Below, in pieces: positions 19,978 to 62,165 of a stretch of DNA of 64,000 bases. Source of the DNA: Polyangium fumosum (GTDB lineage Bacteria; Myxococcota_A; Polyangia; Polyangiales; Polyangiaceae). The position numbers were made by a program, and so were the translations under genes. The notes beneath the pieces are model-generated. The model had not been told where the DNA came from, searched no databases, and saw only the letters and a program-made list of their open reading frames with translations. The DNA is taken from contig NZ_SSMQ01000017.1 of NCBI RefSeq assembly GCF_005144585.1, positions 1 through 64,000 on the forward strand, given 5' to 3'. Positions within the stretch are counted from its first letter, which is position 1, and every line of letters starts with the position of its first letter.

Positions 19978-21174
19978 TCAAGCGCCGGCGGCTGCGTCCA
20001 TCGCCTGCAAGAGGTCTCCGACCACGTCCTCGGTCTCCTCGATTCCCACGGCGAGCCGCACGAGCCCCGGCGCGATCCCGACCGCGACGAGCTCCTCCGG
20101 CCCGAGCTCCGAATAACTCATGATCGCGGGCTGCTCGATGAGCGTCTCCACGCCGCCGAGGCTCGGCGCGATCCGCGCGAGCTTGCACGCGTCCACCACG
20201 CGCCGCGCTCCGTCCTTGCCGCCGCGGACCACGAAGGACACGACGCCCCCGCCGCCCGCGAGGTGCTTCTTGGCGATCGCGTGATCCGGGTGGGATTCGA
20301 GCATCGGGTAGTAGACGCGCTCCACGGCCGGGTGCGCTTCGAGGGCGCGCGCCACCTCGAGCGCCGTCTGGTTTTGTCGGGCGACCCGGAGCGAGAGCGT
20401 CTTCATGCCGCGCCCGATCAGCATCGCCGCGTGGGGATCGGACACGCCCCCGAGCACGTCGCGCGCCTCGTGCACCACGGAGAGCAGCGACGACGGCCCC
20501 GACACGCTCCCGCCGAGCACGTCGTTGTGCCCGCCGAGGTACTTCGTCGCGCTGTGCACCACGAGGTCGATGCCCATGGCCGAGAACATGGCATTGATGG
20601 GCGTGGCGAACGTCGCGTCGACGAGCGTCTTCGCCCGCGTCTTCTTGCAGATCTCCGCGAGCCGCTCCACGTCGACGCAGCGGAGGTAGGGGTTCGTCGG
20701 CATCTCGGTGATCACGAGCCGCGTCTTCGGCCCGATCGCGGCGGCGAGCCCGTCGAGGTCGCCGGGCTCGAGCAGCGTGTGCGACACGCCGAGGCGAGAG
20801 AGCATCTTCACCACGAACTGCCGCGTCCTCCGGTACGTGTCGCGGAAGAGCACCACGTCGTCGCCGGCCTTCACGAGCGCGAGGATCGTCGTGGTCAAGG
20901 CGGCCATGCCGCTCGGGAAGAGCAGCGCGTCCTCGGTCCCGTCGAGCGCGGCGATGCGCGCCTCGACCTCGCGCACGGTGGGGTTTCCGTAACGCCCGTA
21001 GTCGAGCCGCCCGGGGTCCGGATCCTCGCCGCGCATGAACCGCTCGAGGTCGTCCGAGTCGGCGAACGTGTACGTCGCCGTGAGCGCGATCGAGGGCGCG
21101 AGCGTGTGGTCCGGTCGATCGACGCGTTCGCCTGCGTGAACGGCGTCCGTGCTGGTCGGGAGGGCGGTTTTCAT
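19978..21174 (-). CDS. Cystathionine gamma-synthase/beta-lyase family PLP enzyme
   Basis: A 398-aa trans-sulfuration enzyme of the Cys/Met metabolism PLP family. The PLP lysine is Lys211 in SATKYLGGH, the cofactor Tyr segment is YGRYGNPTVREVE, and FPSGMAAL and TEMPTNPYLRCVD are conserved. It could be cystathionine gamma-synthase, beta-lyase, gamma-lyase or an O-acetylhomoserine-type enzyme; the sequence alone does not settle this. The end SLGGVETLIEQPAIMSY is typical of gamma-synthase/lyase members. It is convergent with the kinase, their stop codons directly abutting, and is transcribed in the same direction as the three-gene operon 8 bp upstream. Confidence 0.88.
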   Translation of the reverse strand: MKTALPTSTDAVHAGERVDRPDHTLAPSIALTATYTFADSDDLERFMRGEDPDPGRLDYGRYGNPTVREVEARIAALDGTEDALLFPSGMAALTTTILALVKAGDDVVLFRDTYRRTRQFVVKMLSRLGVSHTLLEPGDLDGLAAAIGPKTRLVITEMPTNPYLRCVDVERLAEICKKTRAKTLVDATFATPINAMFSAMGIDLVVHSATKYLGGHNDVLGGSVSGPSSLLSVVHEARDVLGGVSDPHAAMLIGRGMKTLSLRVARQNQTALEVARALEAHPAVERVYYPMLESHPDHAIAKKHLAGGGGVVSFVVRGGKDGARRVVDACKLARIAPSLGGVETLIEQPAIMSYSELGPEELVAVGIAPGLVRLAVGIEETEDVVGDLLQAMDAAAGA

Positions 21175-21182
21175 GGGGGAGT

Positions 21183-22583
21183 TCAGGGGAACGGCGCCTG
21201 TAGCCTCACGTCGGTTCGGAGATCATGGAAGACGATGTCTTGGCCGCCGGAGGGGGAGGCGATTACGTCCGCAAAATCGGAAATCTGGGGATGGGTCCCC
21301 GTCTCGAAGAGGATGATCGGGACACCTTGCTCGCGCAGGACCCGTGCGAGCACCATGCAGGCTCGTCGGATCCCATCGGGATCACGGAATGTACGAATCA
21401 CCTGCAGATCTCCGACGAGGACGCGCCGGATGGACTTGCCCTCGTGGATGGCCTTGTTGCAAAGATCGAGGGTGATCGCGAGGAGCCAGTCCCCGCTGAG
21501 GAAGGGTCCTTGACAGTCGACAACGAACCTCCCCTGCTGGGGTTCGTCATCATCTACCGCACGGGTGAAGCTCAGCCGCACGTCGACGCCGGCCTCCTCC
21601 GCGTCGCCGATCGACATGGCAGCGCGACGCACACCGTGAGGACCGCTCACGGCCACCACACTACCCCGCAATGCGGGCCAGGCTGCCGGAGGACTCCATC
21701 CGGAGCCCCACGCTTGCATCCCCGGTCCCCCCTTGGGCCAGCCTGCGAAGAGGATACCTTTGGCGGTCGTCGACTCATACACCCAAGGACGCGGATAAAC
21801 CCGAAGGCCACGCGCTGAGCCTATCGTGAAGGAGTGTCCACCCGGCACCGAAGGCCCCAGCCGATTTTTCGAGACGACCATCCGGCGCGCGGCGCGATGC
21901 GAAAGATCGTTTGGCGAATCCTCGAGCACCGCTCCCAGCTCGATCACGACGTCCGTCGCGAAGCTCCATGCCGAGTGCCGGTGCTCCATGGTCTCCTCCA
22001 GCAGAATGAGGATCATCCCCCGCTCCGCGGCCATCTTGCATAGCTCGTCCGCCAGGATCCGTGGCGCCTGCGCGCCGAGGTTGTATCCATCGGAGAGCGA
22101 GTCCACCACCATCACCCGCGGATAACCTCCCGCGCGCGCGATTTCGTCGAGCAGGCCAAGGAGAGCAGCTACGATGCCGTCTTGCTCCTGCCCTGAAGCG
22201 CCGATATCGAGTGTTCCGGCGAAGATGTCGCTTCCTCGATCTCCCTTGGGATGTACGGGAAACGGCGCCACGGCGTCTGCTGCGTGCGCATCCGCCAGGA
22301 TCACGCGCGATTTTGCGTGTTCGCGCAAGATCCCCGCGTACTGCGCGGCGAACTCTGTCGGCAGGACCTCCACGCAGCCGTAAGCAACATCGGTATCCAA
22401 TGCGCGCGCGAGCGACTCCGCGAGCAGCGTGCCGAACACGGTTTTCCCCGAGCCAGGTGGCCCTCGGAAGAGAATCGTGGTGCTCTCTGCGTGATCCGTG
22501 GAGCGTTTCAGGACGTGAATGCCTCCACCGAGGAGCAAATTGAGCCCCGGAATGTCGACCGGTATCGTCCGCGCTTGTATCAC
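21183..22583 (-). CDS. KaiC/RecA-superfamily ATPase (double domain)
   Basis: A 466-aa protein from GTG 22583, overlapping the upstream stop by 4 nt. It opens like KaiC-family proteins (VDIPGLNLLLGGGI), with Walker A GPPGSGKT at 41-48 and Walker B RVMVVDSLSDG (Asp161). The second half (about 275-466) looks like a second, degenerate RecA lobe: the Walker A position reads SGPHGVRR, which lacks the lysine, and a Walker B-like RRVLVGDL follows. KaiC-like proteins act in signalling, clocks and gas-vesicle or conflict systems; there is no KaiA/KaiB here. It is the last gene of an operon with two unrecognised proteins, and it is the only part with a clear catalytic signature. Confidence 0.8.
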   Translation of the reverse strand: MIQARTIPVDIPGLNLLLGGGIHVLKRSTDHAESTTILFRGPPGSGKTVFGTLLAESLARALDTDVAYGCVEVLPTEFAAQYAGILREHAKSRVILADAHAADAVAPFPVHPKGDRGSDIFAGTLDIGASGQEQDGIVAALLGLLDEIARAGGYPRVMVVDSLSDGYNLGAQAPRILADELCKMAAERGMILILLEETMEHRHSAWSFATDVVIELGAVLEDSPNDLSHRAARRMVVSKNRLGPSVPGGHSFTIGSARGLRVYPRPWVYESTTAKGILFAGWPKGGPGMQAWGSGWSPPAAWPALRGSVVAVSGPHGVRRAAMSIGDAEEAGVDVRLSFTRAVDDDEPQQGRFVVDCQGPFLSGDWLLAITLDLCNKAIHEGKSIRRVLVGDLQVIRTFRDPDGIRRACMVLARVLREQGVPIILFETGTHPQISDFADVIASPSGGQDIVFHDLRTDVRLQAPFP

Positions 22584-23389
22584 GCAGCCCTCACGAGGGA
22601 GCGCTTGCGCATCCGGTCGCGGAAGCTCGTGCACACGGGACCCGGCGGCGACGCGTTCTTCGTCCCTGAATGTTTCTCCAGGACCGCCGCGGCCTCTTCC
22701 GCCCCGCGCCTCCTCTCCTCCTCTGTCCGATTTCGCAACCCCGCCCTGAGCAGCGCCTCCACGTGCGGCGACCCTGCCCGCGAAAGCCCCGCCGCCGCCA
22801 GGTACATGCTCCGCTCCGCCACGCTCGCCCTTGACAACCAGAAACTCGCGTTCACGAGGGACTGTTTGTCCCGCCCGAGCGCCCGGACGAGCTCCTCCTC
22901 GGCCACCGCTTCGATCCGCTTCCAGAGCGCGAACGCCTCGTCCGGCGAGCACACCCAGGCGACCACGTCATCCACGCGCTCGCAGCGAAGACGCTCCGAG
23001 CGCGGCTCCGTTCCCCCCAGCCAGGCGACGAACTCCTCCACGCATGGCGTACGCGTCTCCGAGGTCTGCGGCGTGAGACGCCACGAGGAGCGCCGCTCGC
23101 GGTCCCCCACGATCACGACCCTATCTCCGAACAACGCAGGGACGGAGGAGAGCCGCGTGCCAATCCCGGGAAGCTCGCCCTCCGGGAGAGGCTCGGCGTC
23201 GATCTCCACGAGGACCTCTCGTGGAGATCGCTCTCCTTCAAGAACACGTACGAGCCGTCCGTGCTCGTCGGCCAGCACGGGGCCACGGCGCGCAGGCGTT
23301 TGCTCCGTACCCACCTTCCCGTGAAACCCGACGACCCGAATCCCGGGCAGGCGGCCATCCGTCCCGAGGCGCAAGACATTCGTACTCAT
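22580..23389 (-). CDS. Unrecognised protein, middle gene of the KaiC-like operon
   Basis: A 269-aa protein overlapping both neighbours by 4 nt (22580-22583 and 23386-23389). The N-terminal ~115 residues look beta-rich (RVVGFHGKVG, PVLADEHGRLVRVLEGE, REVLVEIDAEPL, GDRVVIVGDRERR). The C-terminal half is helical and charged, with an Arg/Glu-rich stretch RNRTEEERRRGAEEAAAVLE. No signal peptide, membrane helix or catalytic motif. Its coupling to the ATPase suggests a partner or substrate-binding role, but I do not recognise the family. Confidence 0.7.
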   Translation of the reverse strand: MSTNVLRLGTDGRLPGIRVVGFHGKVGTEQTPARRGPVLADEHGRLVRVLEGERSPREVLVEIDAEPLPEGELPGIGTRLSSVPALFGDRVVIVGDRERRSSWRLTPQTSETRTPCVEEFVAWLGGTEPRSERLRCERVDDVVAWVCSPDEAFALWKRIEAVAEEELVRALGRDKQSLVNASFWLSRASVAERSMYLAAAGLSRAGSPHVEALLRAGLRNRTEEERRRGAEEAAAVLEKHSGTKNASPPGPVCTSFRDRMRKRSLVRAA

Positions 23390-24195
23390 TCGTCTTTCAC
23401 CAGCTCTCGTAAAACCCTACCTGAATCTTCGTAGAGCGTCTGAGAGTGCGCCGCCACCTCGGGGGCCAGGGTCTCGATCGTCGGCGTCTCTCCGGTGCTC
23501 CACCGCAGCTTTTCTGCCACTTCGAGGGCTTGCTGGAGCGCGTCGAACGGCACGTGCAGCGCACGGACGTGCTCGAACGGGAGTCTCCAGGCGATCCGGA
23601 CCTCCCACGTCCAGGCTCTGCGGTCCCCGCATTCGTTCGGGCCGTACTTCTCCCGCCCGCGGCTGCCGTTGTGTTCGAGGAGCTCGGGAGGATCCAGCCG
23701 ATCGGGTTCGCCGGCGGCGCACCGATCGGAGGCGGTCTCCAGATACCGATCGGGCGCATCGTAGGCGCGCGAGAGCCATGTAGCGAAGTGCTCCCGCCAG
23801 CCGGCGAGCGGTATCATCTGCCGTTCCAGAAACGTCCACCGGGCCTCGATGGATTGCTGGGCCCAGGGCATGAGCTTGGGAGACGGATCTTCGAGCGAGC
23901 CGGAGTCGAAGGGGGTCGTGCTGCCCGTACGTCCGTTCTCGGCGGCGGGATCGAAGTAAAGGAGCGCGTCGCCGATGCATTGCTTGCTGTAGAAGCAAGA
24001 CGGTCCGGCATAAGCGAACACGTGATTTCCCCGAAGCCGGCCGAAATCGTCGTCGGGAATGGCCAAGCCCCGCGCCGCCTTGCTCTCGAGGCCCGACCAG
24101 GACGCGCTCCACCCCTCGAATCTCACGCTCACCGGGAAATGAACGAGCGGCATCCGTCCGGCCAGTCGTCTCGCGCAGGCGTCTCGGTCTTCCAT
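23386..24195 (-). CDS. Unrecognised protein, first gene of the KaiC-like operon (possible ADP-ribosyltransferase-like fold)
   Basis: A 269-aa soluble protein starting at ATG 24195. Three features recall the ADP-ribosyltransferase/DarT-like fold: MPLVHFPVSVRFEGW near the N-terminus, then NHVFAYAG and DALLYFDPA in the middle, and near the C-terminus WEVRIAWRLPFEHVRALHVP, where an E-hxhx(5)PxExh-x-hhhh pattern matches the usual last strand with its conserved Glu. Trp and charged residues are frequent. This is weak pattern matching and may be wrong. A 7-bp inverted repeat lies just upstream at 24206-24232, and beyond it the 43-bp hairpin array. Confidence 0.65.
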   Translation of the reverse strand: MEDRDACARRLAGRMPLVHFPVSVRFEGWSASWSGLESKAARGLAIPDDDFGRLRGNHVFAYAGPSCFYSKQCIGDALLYFDPAAENGRTGSTTPFDSGSLEDPSPKLMPWAQQSIEARWTFLERQMIPLAGWREHFATWLSRAYDAPDRYLETASDRCAAGEPDRLDPPELLEHNGSRGREKYGPNECGDRRAWTWEVRIAWRLPFEHVRALHVPFDALQQALEVAEKLRWSTGETPTIETLAPEVAAHSQTLYEDSGRVLRELVKDE

Positions 24196-24205
24196 CGCGT
24201 GTCCT

Positions 24206-24232
24206 GTGGGGATGCTACCTCAACGTCCCCAC
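24206..24232. promoter_or_regulatory. Inverted repeat upstream of the three-gene operon
   Basis: GTGGGGA (24206-24212) and TCCCCAC (24226-24232) form a perfect 7-bp dyad with a 13-bp spacer. It lies 11 bp upstream of the ATG at 24195 on the minus strand. It could be an operator or an mRNA hairpin that covers the ribosome site. A second hairpin, GGGGCG-GCTG-CGCCCC, is at 24256-24271. Confidence 0.4.
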
Positions 24233-24312
24233 GTGCGGAAAGCGCCGAGCCCTCCGGGGCGGCTGCGCCCCGCCGATCCCTCTCCCTGGACGCCTGCACG
24301 CGCACCGGACCG

Positions 24313-24569
24313 GCGCAGAGAGACCTCCCCCCGGGGACGCGCCCCCTCCTGCGCGCCGCAGACATCCATCCGACGTCCCCCCCGAGGACCTCTGCGCCGC
24401 GCAGACGTCCTTCCGACCGTGCCCGGGACCGTCTCTGACGTGTGCAGACTGTGCCCAAGCACACCCGCGTGCATCTCTGCACTGCGCAGACGCCCTTCAG
24501 ATCGTGATCTGGACCGCTTCTGATCCGCGCAGACGCCTCCCCTGCCTCGCTGGGGCATCCTTCTGCGGG
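24313..24569. repeat. Array of six 43-bp hairpin units
   Basis: Within the 464-bp gap between 24195 and 24660, a GCAGAC/GCAGAG hexamer recurs at 24315, 24358, 24401, 24444, 24486 and 24529 (steps 43, 43, 43, 42, 43). A complementary CTG/TCTG end recurs at matching steps: 24348, 24391, 24434, 24476, 24519, 24562. Each unit therefore opens GYGCAGA and closes TCTGYGC or similar, an outer stem; unit 4 is perfect over 7 bp. Inside, several units contain a different short stem: TCCCC/GGGGA, GTCC/GGAC, TGTGC/GCACA, CAGATC/GATCTG, CCCC/GGGG. Sequence differs but pairing is kept, which suggests selection on structure. No coding or known element explains it. Confidence 0.75.
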
Positions 24570-24621
24570 CATCCGAGGATGTCCTGGTCGTTCCTGCGGG
24601 GGCTTCGAAAGATTGTCACAC

Positions 24622-24649
24622 TTGACGCGTCGGAAAAGTGAGGGATAAA
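24622..24649 (+). promoter_or_regulatory. Sigma-70-type promoter for the nitrite/sulfite reductase
   Basis: TTGACG (24622-24627) and GATAAA (24644-24649) are spaced 16 bp apart. The predicted transcript start, about 7 bp past the -10, falls only a few bases before the ATG at 24660, so the mRNA would be leaderless or nearly so. No Shine-Dalgarno sequence is visible, which agrees. Confidence 0.55.
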
Positions 24650-24659
24650 GTTCGCTGCC

Positions 24660-26324
24660 ATGTCTGACGCAGCGTCACGTATGCAGGCCACGCTCGACGA
24701 GTACGCGGAGAACATCCAGCGGTTCAAGCGCGGGGAAATCACGCCGGACCAGTTTCGCCCGCTGCGCCTGGGGATGGGCGTGTACGCGCAGCTCGCGCAC
24801 GTGAAGCACATGCAGCGCATCAAGGTGCCGGGCGGGCGCATGACGGCGGCGCAGCTCGATGCGGTCGCCGAGGTGACGGAGCGCTGGGCGCTCGGGCTCG
24901 CGCACATCACGACGCGTCAAGACATCCAGCTCCATCACCTGGAGATCGAGGAGACGGTGGAGCTGCAGCGCGTCCTCGCGAAGGCGGACGTGACCACCGT
25001 GGGCGCCTGCGCCGACACGGTGCGCAACGTGACCGCGTCGCACCTCGCGGGCGTGGTCGCGGACGAGGTCTTCGACGTCACGCCACACGCCCACGCGATC
25101 ACGCAATACTTCCTGTTCCACCCGCACAACCGGAAGCTCCCGCGCAAGTTCAAGATCGGCCTCTCGGGCAGCACGCGCGACCACGCGCAGATCATGATCA
25201 ACGACCTCGGCCTGCTCGCGCGCGTCACGGACGCGGGGCGCGGGTTCGCGGTGTACGTCGCAGGCGGACTCGGATCGACGCCGGAGATCGCGCACCTCTG
25301 GCGCGACTTCGTGCCCGAGCGGGACGTGCTCGCCGCGTGCGACGCGGTGATCCGGGTCTTCTGGCGGGACGGCGAGCGCAAGAACCGCAAGAAGGCGCGC
25401 ATCAAGTTCCTCCTGCGCAAGCTCGGCGAGGCCGAATTCATGAAGCGGCTCGACGACGAGCTCGCGAAGGTCAAGGCCGAGGAGGGCGCGAAGATCGAGG
25501 CGGAGCTCGATCGTTACCTCGGCGAATACAAGGACGAGGAGGCGCCCCCGCCGGCCCCGGGCGGCGAGGCGATCGGCGACGCCGCCTTCGCGCGCTGGAA
25601 GAGGACGAACACGCTCGCGCAGACGCAGCCTGGCTACCGGGTCGTAACGGTAAAACTCCCGCTCGGCGACATCACGGCCGAGCAGATGCGCAGGCTCGCG
25701 GCGCTCGCGCGGGGCCACGGCAACGGCGAGGTCCGCACGACGAACACGCAGAACTTCGTGATGCGCTTCGTCCCCGAGGGCAACCTCGTGGCCTTGCACC
25801 GCGCGCTCTCGCAGATCGGCCTGGCCGAGCCCGACGCCGGGCACATCACGGACATCGTGGCCTGCCCGGGCGCGGACTATTGCTCGCTCGCGATCACGAA
25901 GAGCATGGGCGTCGGCGCCCGCGTGCGTGAGCACCTGTCGGAGGGCGGCAACCGCGCCGAGGCCGACGATCTCGTGCAGCAGATCGGCGCCTTCGAGATC
26001 AAGATCTCCGGCTGCCCGAACTCGTGCGGCCAGCACCACGTGGCCGACATCGGCATGACGGGGCTGATGGTGAAGGGCAAGGACGGCGTGGAGCGCCCGC
26101 ATTACTCGCTGCGCGTCGGCGGCGGCTGCGGCCCGGACGCGAAGATCGGCGACCGCCTCGACGGCCGCGTGCCCGAGGAGGAGACGCCCAAGGTGATCGC
26201 GGCGATCGCGAGGCATTACGTGCAAGAGCGCGCCGAGGGCGAGAGCTTCCGCGAATTCGTGGCGCGCAAGGGCGCGGGCGACATCGGTCGGATCGGATTC
26301 GCGGCGGCGACCGACGTGATCTGA
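24660..26324 (+). CDS. Assimilatory nitrite/sulfite reductase (sirohaem, 4Fe-4S)
   Basis: A 554-aa enzyme that reduces nitrite to ammonia or sulfite to sulfide by six electrons, probably from ferredoxin. The coupled 4Fe-4S/sirohaem ligands are Cys402-x5-Cys408 (ACPGADYC) and Cys452-x3-Cys456 (GCPNSCGQ). The two ferredoxin-like halves are visible: RLGMGVYAQ and TTRQDIQLHHL in the first, TTNTQNFVMRFV in the second. A Lys/Glu-rich insert at about 240-300 lies between the halves. Nitrite and sulfite reductases cannot be told apart with certainty here. The ATG at 24660 fits the near-leaderless promoter. No siroheme-synthesis or APS reductase gene is adjacent. Confidence 0.9.
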   Translation: MSDAASRMQATLDEYAENIQRFKRGEITPDQFRPLRLGMGVYAQLAHVKHMQRIKVPGGRMTAAQLDAVAEVTERWALGLAHITTRQDIQLHHLEIEETVELQRVLAKADVTTVGACADTVRNVTASHLAGVVADEVFDVTPHAHAITQYFLFHPHNRKLPRKFKIGLSGSTRDHAQIMINDLGLLARVTDAGRGFAVYVAGGLGSTPEIAHLWRDFVPERDVLAACDAVIRVFWRDGERKNRKKARIKFLLRKLGEAEFMKRLDDELAKVKAEEGAKIEAELDRYLGEYKDEEAPPPAPGGEAIGDAAFARWKRTNTLAQTQPGYRVVTVKLPLGDITAEQMRRLAALARGHGNGEVRTTNTQNFVMRFVPEGNLVALHRALSQIGLAEPDAGHITDIVACPGADYCSLAITKSMGVGARVREHLSEGGNRAEADDLVQQIGAFEIKISGCPNSCGQHHVADIGMTGLMVKGKDGVERPHYSLRVGGGCGPDAKIGDRLDGRVPEEETPKVIAAIARHYVQERAEGESFREFVARKGAGDIGRIGFAAATDVI

Positions 26325-61251: not shown

Positions 61252-61974
61252 TCACGCCTCCGCGTCCTCGTTCGTCCCGGTCGCCTCGTCTTCGCTCGTC
61301 CCTTCGCTCGGCCTCTCGCCCTTCAGGAAGAACGACTCCACGAAGTCGCGTTGCCCCGGGAAGAGCGCGCCGAGCGAGCGGTGCACGCGCTCCAGCTCCA
61401 GCCGCAACCGACCCTTCGCGACGAGCTCCTCGGAGCGCTCCTTCGACCAGCCCGTCTGCGCGCCGTCATTGGCGTGGATCGCCTGCTGCGCGCGTTCCGC
61501 ACCTTCCTTCAGCTTGCCCACGAGGCCCGCGCGCTCGCCGAAGTCTTCGCCGGCTTCGAGGCGCCCGGCCGCCTCGTTCGCGAGCTTGGGACGCTTGTCG
61601 ATCGGCGCGCGCGAAAAACCGGTGAGCAGGCCAGGTAGGAAGGAGGTGACGGCCGGGTGCTTCTTCGAGCCTCCGCCAAGGCGGATCGTGACGAGGGCGA
61701 GCGCCTCGTCGACCCTGCGCTTGAGCAAGACGAGCGTCGCGTTTTGCTTGGCCTGCGCGGAGGGGCGGCCGAAGAGCTGGGCCTCCTGCGTGTCGCGCGC
61801 CTCCTTGAGGAGGGAGTCGATGTGGATCTTGAGGGCGTGCGCGAGCTTCTCGATCTCGGCCCGATCGCTGGGCTTGAGGTCCGGAATTTCTGCCCAGGCG
61901 CAGAGGGAAGACCACGTGAAGGATGCAAACGTGAGGAGAACCCAGGAGGAAGCTGTCTCGTTGGGCAGGCGCAT
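61252..61974 (-). CDS. Secreted hypothetical helical protein
   Basis: A 240-aa protein with an apparent signal peptide (SWVLLTFASFTWSSLCAWAEIP). The mature part is charged and helical (SDRAEIEKLAHALKIHIDSLLKEARDTQEAQLFG; LVLLKRRVDEALALV; LRLELERVHRSLGALFPGQRDFVESFF). Glu/Ala-rich C-terminus. It lies upstream of the ATPase pair with a 37-bp gap, on the same strand, so it may be co-transcribed. No motif recognised. Confidence 0.6.
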   Translation of the reverse strand: MRLPNETASSWVLLTFASFTWSSLCAWAEIPDLKPSDRAEIEKLAHALKIHIDSLLKEARDTQEAQLFGRPSAQAKQNATLVLLKRRVDEALALVTIRLGGGSKKHPAVTSFLPGLLTGFSRAPIDKRPKLANEAAGRLEAGEDFGERAGLVGKLKEGAERAQQAIHANDGAQTGWSKERSEELVAKGRLRLELERVHRSLGALFPGQRDFVESFFLKGERPSEGTSEDEATGTNEDAEA

Positions 61975-62165
61975 GGGGAGGACGCTCCGGGAAGGTTGGG
62001 GGATGTACGAGGCGGCGGGAAGGACGCTAACGAAAGCGAGGCGGGAGCGTCAAGGCGGAGTGGAGGAGGCGGACACTCCGTTGCAGGAGGGTCAGGGAGG
62101 CGGGGAGGAGGCGTCCGAGGCGTCGCTGAAGGGTCAGCGCGGCGGCGAGGGGCCGACGTAGATGG

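What the first reader, a model, noticed from the sequence alone, without database searches (positions are those of the whole stretch)
24313..24569. Six-unit, 43-bp hairpin array with covarying inner stems
GCAGAC-type openings recur at 24315, 24358, 24401, 24444, 24486 and 24529, and complementary TCTG/CTG closings recur with the same steps. Each unit can close an outer stem (unit 4 pairs GTGCAGA with TCTGCAC). Inner stems differ in sequence but keep pairing (TGTGC/GCACA, CAGATC/GATCTG, TCCCC/GGGGA, GTCC/GGAC). Conserved period with changing paired bases suggests structure is selected: a repeated RNA hairpin, or a DNA target for a protein. It lies 118 bp upstream of an unusual three-gene operon. 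No coding or standard repeat class explains it.
Basis: seen in the sequence. Interest (0 to 1): 0.7.

Follow-up and report, generated by a model that had tools for sequence, protein, structure and literature searches.

The report
Fixed-length 43-bp intergenic tandem repeats
The six-unit array is a worn, old example of a class of tandem DNA repeats between genes whose unit is 43 letters long whatever its sequence, which suggests that some unknown process in these bacteria fixes repeat length.

Summary
The 43-bp periodicity is real (lag-43 identity 0.45, null 0.30). On the minus strand each unit is a degenerate 15-bp palindrome plus a 28-bp linker, about 24277-24576. The covarying inner stem is suggestive only: strong in a naive count, but p 0.05 once relatedness is allowed for, third of 86 centres tried.

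Arrays with this core occur at two further loci of the genus; a two-core pattern found no other genus positive among 108 family genomes. The array diverges faster than nearby noncoding DNA.

The wider result is unexpected. In 1.2 Mb of a closed congener genome, of lags 10-200 not divisible by 3 only 43, 86 and 172 recur at three or more noncoding loci. In samples of three genomes, 22 of 25 strong noncoding arrays of such periods lie within 1.5 bp of a multiple of 21.5 (17% by chance). Unit sequences are mostly unrelated. Beside a parS-like site six of six congeners have 42-43-bp arrays, in five unrelated sequences.

Best reading: a decayed minisatellite of a fixed-length class; the ruler is unknown. 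My searches found no earlier description.

The parts
24277..24576 (-). Array: seven units of 43 bp (one of 42), read on the minus strand as core TCTGCG-NNN-CGCAGA plus a 28-bp linker; the outermost two units are degenerate
   Evidence: Lag-43 identity, unit segmentation, TRF period 43 at relaxed settings 24313-24541; standard settings miss it
24534..24576 (-). unit 1 (weak core TCGGATGCCCGCAGA), 43 bp
24491..24533 (-). unit 2 (TCTGCGCGGATCAGA), 43 bp
24449..24490 (-). unit 3 (TCTGCGCAGTGCAGA), 42 bp; the 1-bp shortening is shared with G005, not with G001
24406..24448 (-). unit 4 (TCTGCACACGTCAGA), 43 bp
24363..24405 (-). unit 5 (perfect core TCTGCGCGGCGCAGA), 43 bp
24320..24362 (-). unit 6 (TCTGCGGCGCGCAGG), 43 bp
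24277..24319 (-). unit 7 (degenerate, TCTGCGCCGGTCCGG), 43 bp
24262..24276 (-). Possible eighth core (TCGGCGGGGCGCAGC), in phase
24622..24651 (+). Probable sigma-70-like promoter (TTGACG ... TAAAGT) of the reductase gene, outside the array; similar sequence in three congeners that lack the array
   Evidence: Judged by eye; sequences and positions
24660..26324 (+). Nitrite/sulfite reductase gene to the right of the array
   Evidence: Pfam PF01077, PF03460
23386..24195 (-). Divergent gene to the left, no Pfam match; not beside the array in G005

Best explanation
The array is an old, mutated minisatellite (head-to-tail intergenic tandem repeat), one member of a class in the window's family in which unit length, not sequence, is fixed: 43 bp and multiples, with a weaker step of about 21.5 bp. 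Proposed working: a short duplication arises between genes; if its length is close to an even number of helical turns (43 bp is about four turns of 10.75 bp), the copying or exchange step that multiplies units works in register and the array grows to several copies; unit sequences drift, are carried between sites or replaced, and arrays that are no longer recopied decay by point mutation, as here. Shown: the period, its independence of sequence, different sequences at one site in sister species, one sequence family at three loci, faster divergence than nearby noncoding DNA. Suggested: units tend to be reverse-complement symmetric, with two dyads half a period apart. Inferred: that the length preference acts at amplification or retention, and the helical explanation. 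What measures 43 bp is not identified.
For: Same-core arrays at three loci of the genus, reversed-pattern control 0. In 1.2 Mb of G004, separate noncoding loci per lag: 43 at 11, 86 at 10, 172 at 6, none at 38, 40, 41, 44, 46, 47; no other lag in 10-200 that is not a multiple of 3 reaches 3. Of 25 noncoding arrays with TRF score 150 or more, period 20 or more and not a multiple of 3, 22 lie within 1.5 bp of k x 21.5 (17.4% of possible periods do) and 11 are exactly 43; 22 of 29 at score 100. Second genus G036, 400 kb: 5 arrays of period 43. 32 unit consensuses of period 42, 43 or multiples form 22 sequence families. At the aroC site six of six congeners have a 42-43-bp array in five families. 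Arrays of 2.8 copies or more are at 43 or 86 in 8 of 16 cases in G004 and 4 of 11 in G036; two-copy ones at 43 in 2 of 19 and 1 of 22.
Against: In the sample of the window's own genome (464 kb, draft, window included) no locus reaches the lag-43 threshold of 62% (the window array itself has 45%), the only clear extra member has period 87, and no two-copy or multi-copy array at 43 was found; the draft breaks at the aroC array. Multiples of 3 were set aside as possibly coding, but some are frequent in noncoding too (lags 21, 42, 48 at 10, 8, 7 loci of G004). The helical idea does not explain why 43 outweighs 21.5 and 64.5. Slower change of the core and symmetry of units are not needed by a purely neutral repeat. 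Some arrays counted as separate share a sequence family. My coding mask is a heuristic on G+C by codon position, not a gene finder.
Confidence: 0.55

Rival explanations
1. Operator array: the 15-bp palindrome is the site of a dimeric regulator, repeated every four helical turns so that dimers stack on one face between the promoters of the reductase gene and its divergent neighbour.
For: Core changes more slowly than linker: rank 1 of 43 rotations in array 1, 4 of 43 in array 2. Arrays 1 and 2 fill divergent intergenic regions next to likely promoters, judged by eye.
Against: Cores are hardly more frequent than the reversed control: 3 v 4, 4 v 3, 5 v 3, 5 v 4, 12 v 7, 8 v 7 on one strand in six genomes; 13 of those 37 lie in the arrays, leaving 24 v 28. 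Three of six genomes of the genus lack array 1 but keep the promoter-like sequence. The array diverges faster than nearby noncoding DNA. Array 3 lies between co-directional genes, where the other species hold unrelated 43-bp arrays.
Confidence: 0.15
2. Symmetry-read DNA: the arrays are kept because they place dyads every 21.5 bp (core centre and linker centre, two turns apart), which a structure-reading protein or cruciform extrusion uses without regard to sequence.
For: Linker-centre dyad exactly half a period from the core centre, 69.1% paired v 59.5%. Whole-unit folds beat shuffles, mean z -0.82 (se 0.19) and -1.03 (se 0.20) over 52 units. Units of 18 families have global reverse-complement symmetry z 1.47 (se 0.36), dinucleotide shuffles 1.38 (se 0.35), against 0.32 and 0.22 in 150 random noncoding 43-mers. 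Step of 21.5 bp in the class.
Against: With related units grouped, the linker dyad has p 0.05, or 0.09 with Watson-Crick pairs only, and two other centres of 86 score as high. Noncoding tandem units of other lengths also show symmetry, z 0.61-0.82 (se 0.16-0.18). Best local inverted repeat only z 0.66 (se 0.27) over 25 arrays; -0.22 in 30 coding units. Two dyads half a period apart: mean z 0.83 (se 0.31).
Confidence: 0.15
3. Structured RNA: the array is transcribed and each unit folds into a selected hairpin.
For: Whole-array folds z -2.9 and -3.9; three-species consensus fold z -3.4 (0 of 100 shuffles) and -2.4 (1 of 100) for array 1; unit-closing stem 8 two-sided cells v 4.5, 24 of 500 shuffles; linker dyad.
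Against: Covariation term within the shuffled range in both arrays and strands; array 2 consensus fold z -1.7 and -0.9; linkers near chance. No Rfam family near cut-off. The likely reductase promoter lies downstream of the array.
Confidence: 0.06
4. Mobile palindromes of the REP/BIME kind moved by a RAYT (Y1) transposase.
For: One sequence family occurs at three loci of the genus; another (GGGGTCG..CGACCCC) at several loci of G004.
Against: G004, rich in arrays, has no Y1_Tnp match; 4 of 7 genomes have one. Cores outside the arrays are no more frequent than the control. Unrelated families share the length.
Confidence: 0.05
5. A guide array of CRISPR or TIGR type.
For: Conserved palindrome with more variable stretches at fixed spacing.
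Against: Linkers are inherited at the same locus and share a consensus, so they do not look like acquired spacers; Nop-domain proteins in 0 of 7 genomes. cas genes were not searched.
Confidence: 0.02

Closest known systems
Bacterial minisatellites / VNTR loci (for example MIRU-type intergenic repeats; recalled, not from a call)
   Same: Head-to-tail intergenic units of tens of bases, several copies, gain and loss between lineages, decay by point mutation.
   Different: As recalled, known loci in one genome have assorted unit lengths; here unrelated sequences share one length, 43 bp and multiples, in two genera.
REP / BIME palindromic repeats (recalled)
   Same: Palindromic core, intergenic, clustered.
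   Different: No excess of isolated cores, no Y1 transposase match in G004, fixed period with variable sequence.
Satellite DNA of eukaryotes (recalled)
   Same: Unit length kept while sequence turns over; multiples of a base unit (43, 86, 129, 172).
   Different: Arrays of a few hundred bases at many sites of a bacterial chromosome.
Operator arrays with helical phasing (recalled)
   Same: Palindromes about four helical turns apart.
   Different: No regulon of isolated cores found, and the core sequence is not shared by the class.

Membership tests
Bacterial minisatellite / VNTR | Head-to-tail units, tens of bases, several copies | tested here: met
Bacterial minisatellite / VNTR | Outside coding sequence | tested here: met
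   Between ORFs 23386-24195 and 24660-26324; unit not a multiple of 3
Bacterial minisatellite / VNTR | Copy number varies among strains of a species | not testable with these tools
   One genome per species held; between species array 2 has 7-8 units in G000, G002, G004, G005, two in G001, a one-unit remnant in G003
Fixed-length 43-bp class (defined here) | Noncoding period 43 or multiple, independent of sequence | tested here: met
   the window array joins it by period and by its kinship with array 3
Structured RNA family | Compensatory base changes beyond controls | tested here: inconclusive
   within controls; above its shuffles but p 0.05 with relatedness allowed for
Structured RNA family | Match to a curated Rfam family | tested here: not met
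   23900-24900 searched: only mir-933 at 19.7 bits, E 0.31, cut-off 100
REP/BIME with RAYT | Y1 transposase in the genome | tested here: not met
   0 matches in G002, G003, G004; matches in 4 of 7 genomes, the window's own included; G004 is rich in arrays without one
REP/BIME with RAYT | Many dispersed single palindromes | tested here: not met
   24 cores outside arrays against 28 for the reversed control, six genomes, one strand
Operator array | Slower change of the site than of its surroundings | tested here: inconclusive
   Core slower than linker but whole array faster than neighbours
CRISPR array | Near-identical repeats with unique spacers | tested here: not met
   Repeats degenerate, linkers share a consensus and are inherited in place
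CRISPR array | cas genes | not tested
   no search made
TIGR-Tas (definition recalled) | Nop-domain Tas protein | tested here: not met
   0 of 7 genomes

The most novel reading that the evidence does not exclude
These bacteria (probably Polyangiaceae; no call names them) possess a sequence-blind molecular ruler: a replication, repair or nucleoid process that multiplies intergenic DNA in units of 43 bp (four turns of the helix, with symmetric half-units of about 21.5 bp), creating bacterial satellites that carry a new sequence at the same site in each species.
Probability: 0.35. Interest if true: 0.85.

Novelty: new variant of a known kind. Interest (0 to 1): 0.62.

Why it matters
Tandem repeats are usually explained by slippage on whatever sequence is there, with no preferred length. 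Many unrelated arrays sharing one unit length, and one site filled with different 43-bp sequences in sister species, point to a physical or enzymatic measuring step. That can be tested in closed genomes and in culture, and would bear on how satellite DNA keeps its unit length in general.

Tried and rejected
Covarying RNA hairpin: my first verdict was outright rejection. That dyad was chosen, whose two strongest of 1540 column pairs (25-34, z 3.1; 27-33, z 2.6) lie in the linker. With homologous units grouped it is p 0.05 and third of 86 centres. I now call it suggestive, and lowered the main explanation from 0.62 to 0.55 for that reason. A 28-nt RNA fold is a weak test of a dyad with a 2-nt gap.

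Low indel rate as proof of constraint: by MAFFT the window and G005 arrays differ by 42 substitutions and no gap, but a blastn comparison gives 17 gaps per 240 substitutions in arrays against 40 per 943 in nearby noncoding DNA (Fisher p 0.09, the wrong direction), so I dropped it. Regulon of the core: not supported. RAYT and Nop proteins: not supported. Promoter bias of the class: 13 co-directional, 7 convergent, 3 divergent of 23 arrays with called neighbours, against 141, 55, 89 background gaps of 200-1500 bp. A hairpin in every unit: weak, mean z 0.66 (se 0.27) over 25 arrays, 1.24 (se 0.76) over the 6 aroC-site arrays, against -0.22 (se 0.19) over 30 coding arrays. Ten loci of about 3 kb from other genera showed no 43-bp array but hold too little DNA to tell. 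The exact two-core pattern found nothing in genome contigs, which may leave out near relatives. One Pfam query (the eighth) was out of frame; one search repeats it correctly, still without a match.

Full report
What is there. The array is real. GCAGA words stand at the six stated positions, 43, 43, 43, 42 and 43 bp apart. In 24276-24576 the best self-match is at lag 43 (0.453; lags 85 and 128 follow), the null mean is 0.304, and in 5 of 2000 first-order Markov sequences some lag from 5 to 139 reaches 0.453; the same statistic has its window-wide maximum here. Read on the minus strand, each unit is a 15-bp palindrome TCTGCG-NNN-CGCAGA and a 28-bp linker; seven units cover 24277-24576 and an eighth core-like word lies at 24262-24276. 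Standard tandem-repeat settings miss it; relaxed ones give period 43. It lies between a minus-strand gene starting at 24195 and a plus-strand nitrite/sulfite reductase gene at 24660. A TTGACG...TAAAGT promoter, judged by eye, sits at 24622-24651, outside the array, and a similar sequence is kept in three congeners without the array.

RNA or DNA structure. The whole array folds better than shuffles on both strands, as repeated palindromes would. Over 52 units of 9 arrays (5 of the 8 near-identical units of array 3 used), linker folds have mean z -0.01 and -0.32, whole units -0.82 and -1.03. On ortholog alignments the consensus fold of array 1 beats column shuffles (z -3.4 and -2.4), that of array 2 little (z -1.7 and -0.9), and the covariation term is reached by 54, 64, 9 and 84 of 100 shuffles. 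RNAalifold on the 35-row alignment finds 4 pairs worth -1.3 kcal/mol. The core hairpin shows 7 two-sided pairs against 5.9 and 84.3% paired cells against 83.0% (10 of 500 shuffles); the unit-closing stem 87.1% against 86.2% (48 of 500). A dyad at the linker centre does stand out in the naive count: 69.1% v 59.5% paired, 42 v 23.8 two-sided cells, both 0 of 500. Its rows overlap and are related, and the place was picked. Permuting 15 groups of homologous units gives 0.646 v 0.592, p 0.05; Watson-Crick only p 0.09; among 86 centres it ranks third. Its centre is exactly half a period (21.5 bp) from that of the core.

Relatives of this unit. A two-core pattern at exact 43-bp spacing, up to 3 mismatches, gave 4, 4, 2, 0, 6 and 5 places per strand in G000, G001, G002, G003, G004, G005 and none for the reversed control; in 108 genomes of the family only five of these six are positive. 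A covariance model found one more array, the G004 copy of array 2. Array 1 (reductase locus) is in G000, G005, G001 and absent from G002, G003, G004, which have a short gap there. Array 2, between an 87-aa and a 237-aa gene without Pfam match, is long in G000, G002, G004, G005, cut to two units in G001, and a one-unit remnant in G003. Array 3 of this family lies in G004 between aroC and a shikimate kinase-dehydroquinate synthase gene (named by reading translations), next to a TTTCACGTGAAA parS-like site. Gene names and the parS consensus are recalled knowledge.

Evolution. Window and G005 arrays differ at 42 of 257 sites with no gap by MAFFT; window and G001 at 75 of 257 with one gap; array 2 pairs at 54-128 of 321-344 with 0-2 gaps. 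Core sites change less than linker sites (0.144 v 0.261 in array 1, 0.196 v 0.305 in array 2); among 43 phase rotations the true phase ranks 1, 4, and 3 for both combined. But by blastn the array is more divergent than nearby noncoding DNA (window-G005 15.8% v 9.6%; array 2, G000 with G005 28.7% v 9.8%, with G002 28.8% v 11.4%, with G001 7 of 23 v 13.1%), and its gap rate is not lower. Outside arrays, single cores number 24 against 28 for the control. So selection on the core is possible but not shown.

The wider class. At the aroC site all six congeners hold a tandem array: period 43 in G000, G005, G002 and G004, a mixture of 42 and 43 in G001 and G003. By circular comparison only G001 and G002 share a sequence there, so five unrelated sequences occur at one site. 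In G000 the array is cut by contig ends, so its link to the downstream gene is not assembled. I then took 60 spread 20-kb stretches of the closed G004 genome (1.2 Mb), 20 of G036 (another genus of the family, 400 kb) and 20 of G000 plus the window (464 kb). In noncoding DNA of G004, lag 43 (62% identity over 90 bp) is reached at 11 separate loci, 86 at 10, 172 at 6, and zero at 38, 40, 41, 44, 46 and 47; no other lag from 10 to 200 that is not a multiple of 3 reaches three loci. Multiples of 3, which I set aside because coding repeats leak through my mask, include 129 at 9, 21 at 10, 42 at 8 and 48 at 7. G036 shows 43 at 5, 44 at 4, 86 at 5, 172 at 3 and 22 at 4. G000 shows none at 43; its one clear extra member has period 87. 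From TRF, noncoding arrays with score 150 or more, period 20 or more and not a multiple of 3 have periods 22 x2, 43 x11, 64 x2, 65, 73, 83, 85 x2, 86 x3, 166, 194: 22 of 25 within 1.5 bp of a multiple of 21.5, against 17.4% of possible periods; at score 100 it is 22 of 29; coding arrays give 5 of 32. Dropped before this count: all multiples of 3, which include two of 129 that would fit and others that would not (listed), and weaker arrays. Thirty-two unit consensuses (25 from the samples, of which 6 have period 42 and may be coding; 6 from the aroC site; 1 consensus of arrays 1 and 2) form 22 sequence families; without the families made only of sample units of period 42 it is 17. The commonest hexamer occurs in 7 of 22 families; the best hexamer of random draws averages 7.1. 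Eleven loci in 1.2 Mb would mean roughly 120 in the 13.2-Mb genome (extrapolation).

Symmetry of the class. Scored as circles, one unit from each of 18 families matches its own reverse complement better than shuffles (mean z 1.47, se 0.36; dinucleotide shuffles 1.38, se 0.35). Random noncoding 43-mers give 0.32 and 0.22 (n 150), coding 43-mers 0.06 and -0.06 (n 80), coding tandem units 0.57 and 0.48 (n 37), other noncoding tandem units 0.82 and 0.61 (n 52). A circle with this symmetry has two dyads half a period apart, which would fit the 21.5-bp step. The excess over other tandem units is about two standard errors.

How it may work. Two-copy noncoding duplications have many lengths (43 in 2 of 19 in G004, 1 of 22 in G036, 0 of 8 in G000), while arrays of 2.8 copies or more concentrate on 43 and 86 (8 of 16 in G004, 4 of 11 in G036, 0 of 2 in G000, where one is 87). 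The numbers are small, but suggest that length matters when arrays grow or are kept, not when a first duplicate forms. The step of 21.5 bp is two turns at 10.75 bp per turn, close to recalled values for underwound DNA; that link is inference. Arrays of the class are not biased to divergent promoter gaps: 3 of 23.

Known or new. Intergenic minisatellites are a known kind. I found no report of a fixed unit length across unrelated sequences, nor of these repeats in myxobacteria, in eight full-text searches, of which I saw only listings and abstract openings; most subscription papers are not covered. I therefore call it a new variant of a known kind. The window array alone is a modest, decaying example. 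No call names the organism; 'Polyangiaceae' is inference.

Noticed in passing
L039:9667, L097, L098, L099, L100, L101: A TTTCACGTGAAA parS-like site directly follows aroC in all six congeners, with the 42-43-bp array beside it; three further such sites lie within 6 kb in G004 (L039 12858, 13568, 15528).
   Followed up: partly
L104:18379-19149: Array of period 73 with 10.5 copies and 68% matches, not a multiple of 21.5; possibly a CRISPR array.
   Followed up: no
L136:19697, L141:4229, L124:5270, L167:16090, L164:4548: A recurring short element like GGGGTTTCACCCCTGGACCCCGACCA appears as near-duplicate pairs at several noncoding places in G004 and G000.
   Followed up: no
window 61967-62161: A weak array of period 42 at relaxed settings; coding status not settled.
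   Followed up: no
window 21183-24195: Genes between the Cys/Met-metabolism gene (19978-21174) and array 1 in the window, two of them without Pfam match, are missing in G002, G003 and G004, where that gene starts next to the reductase promoter region, and in G005, where only the array region lies between (by eye).
   Followed up: partly
L098:400-770: In G003 a small gene-like insert separates two blocks of the species-specific 42-43-bp array at the aroC site (by eye).
   Followed up: no
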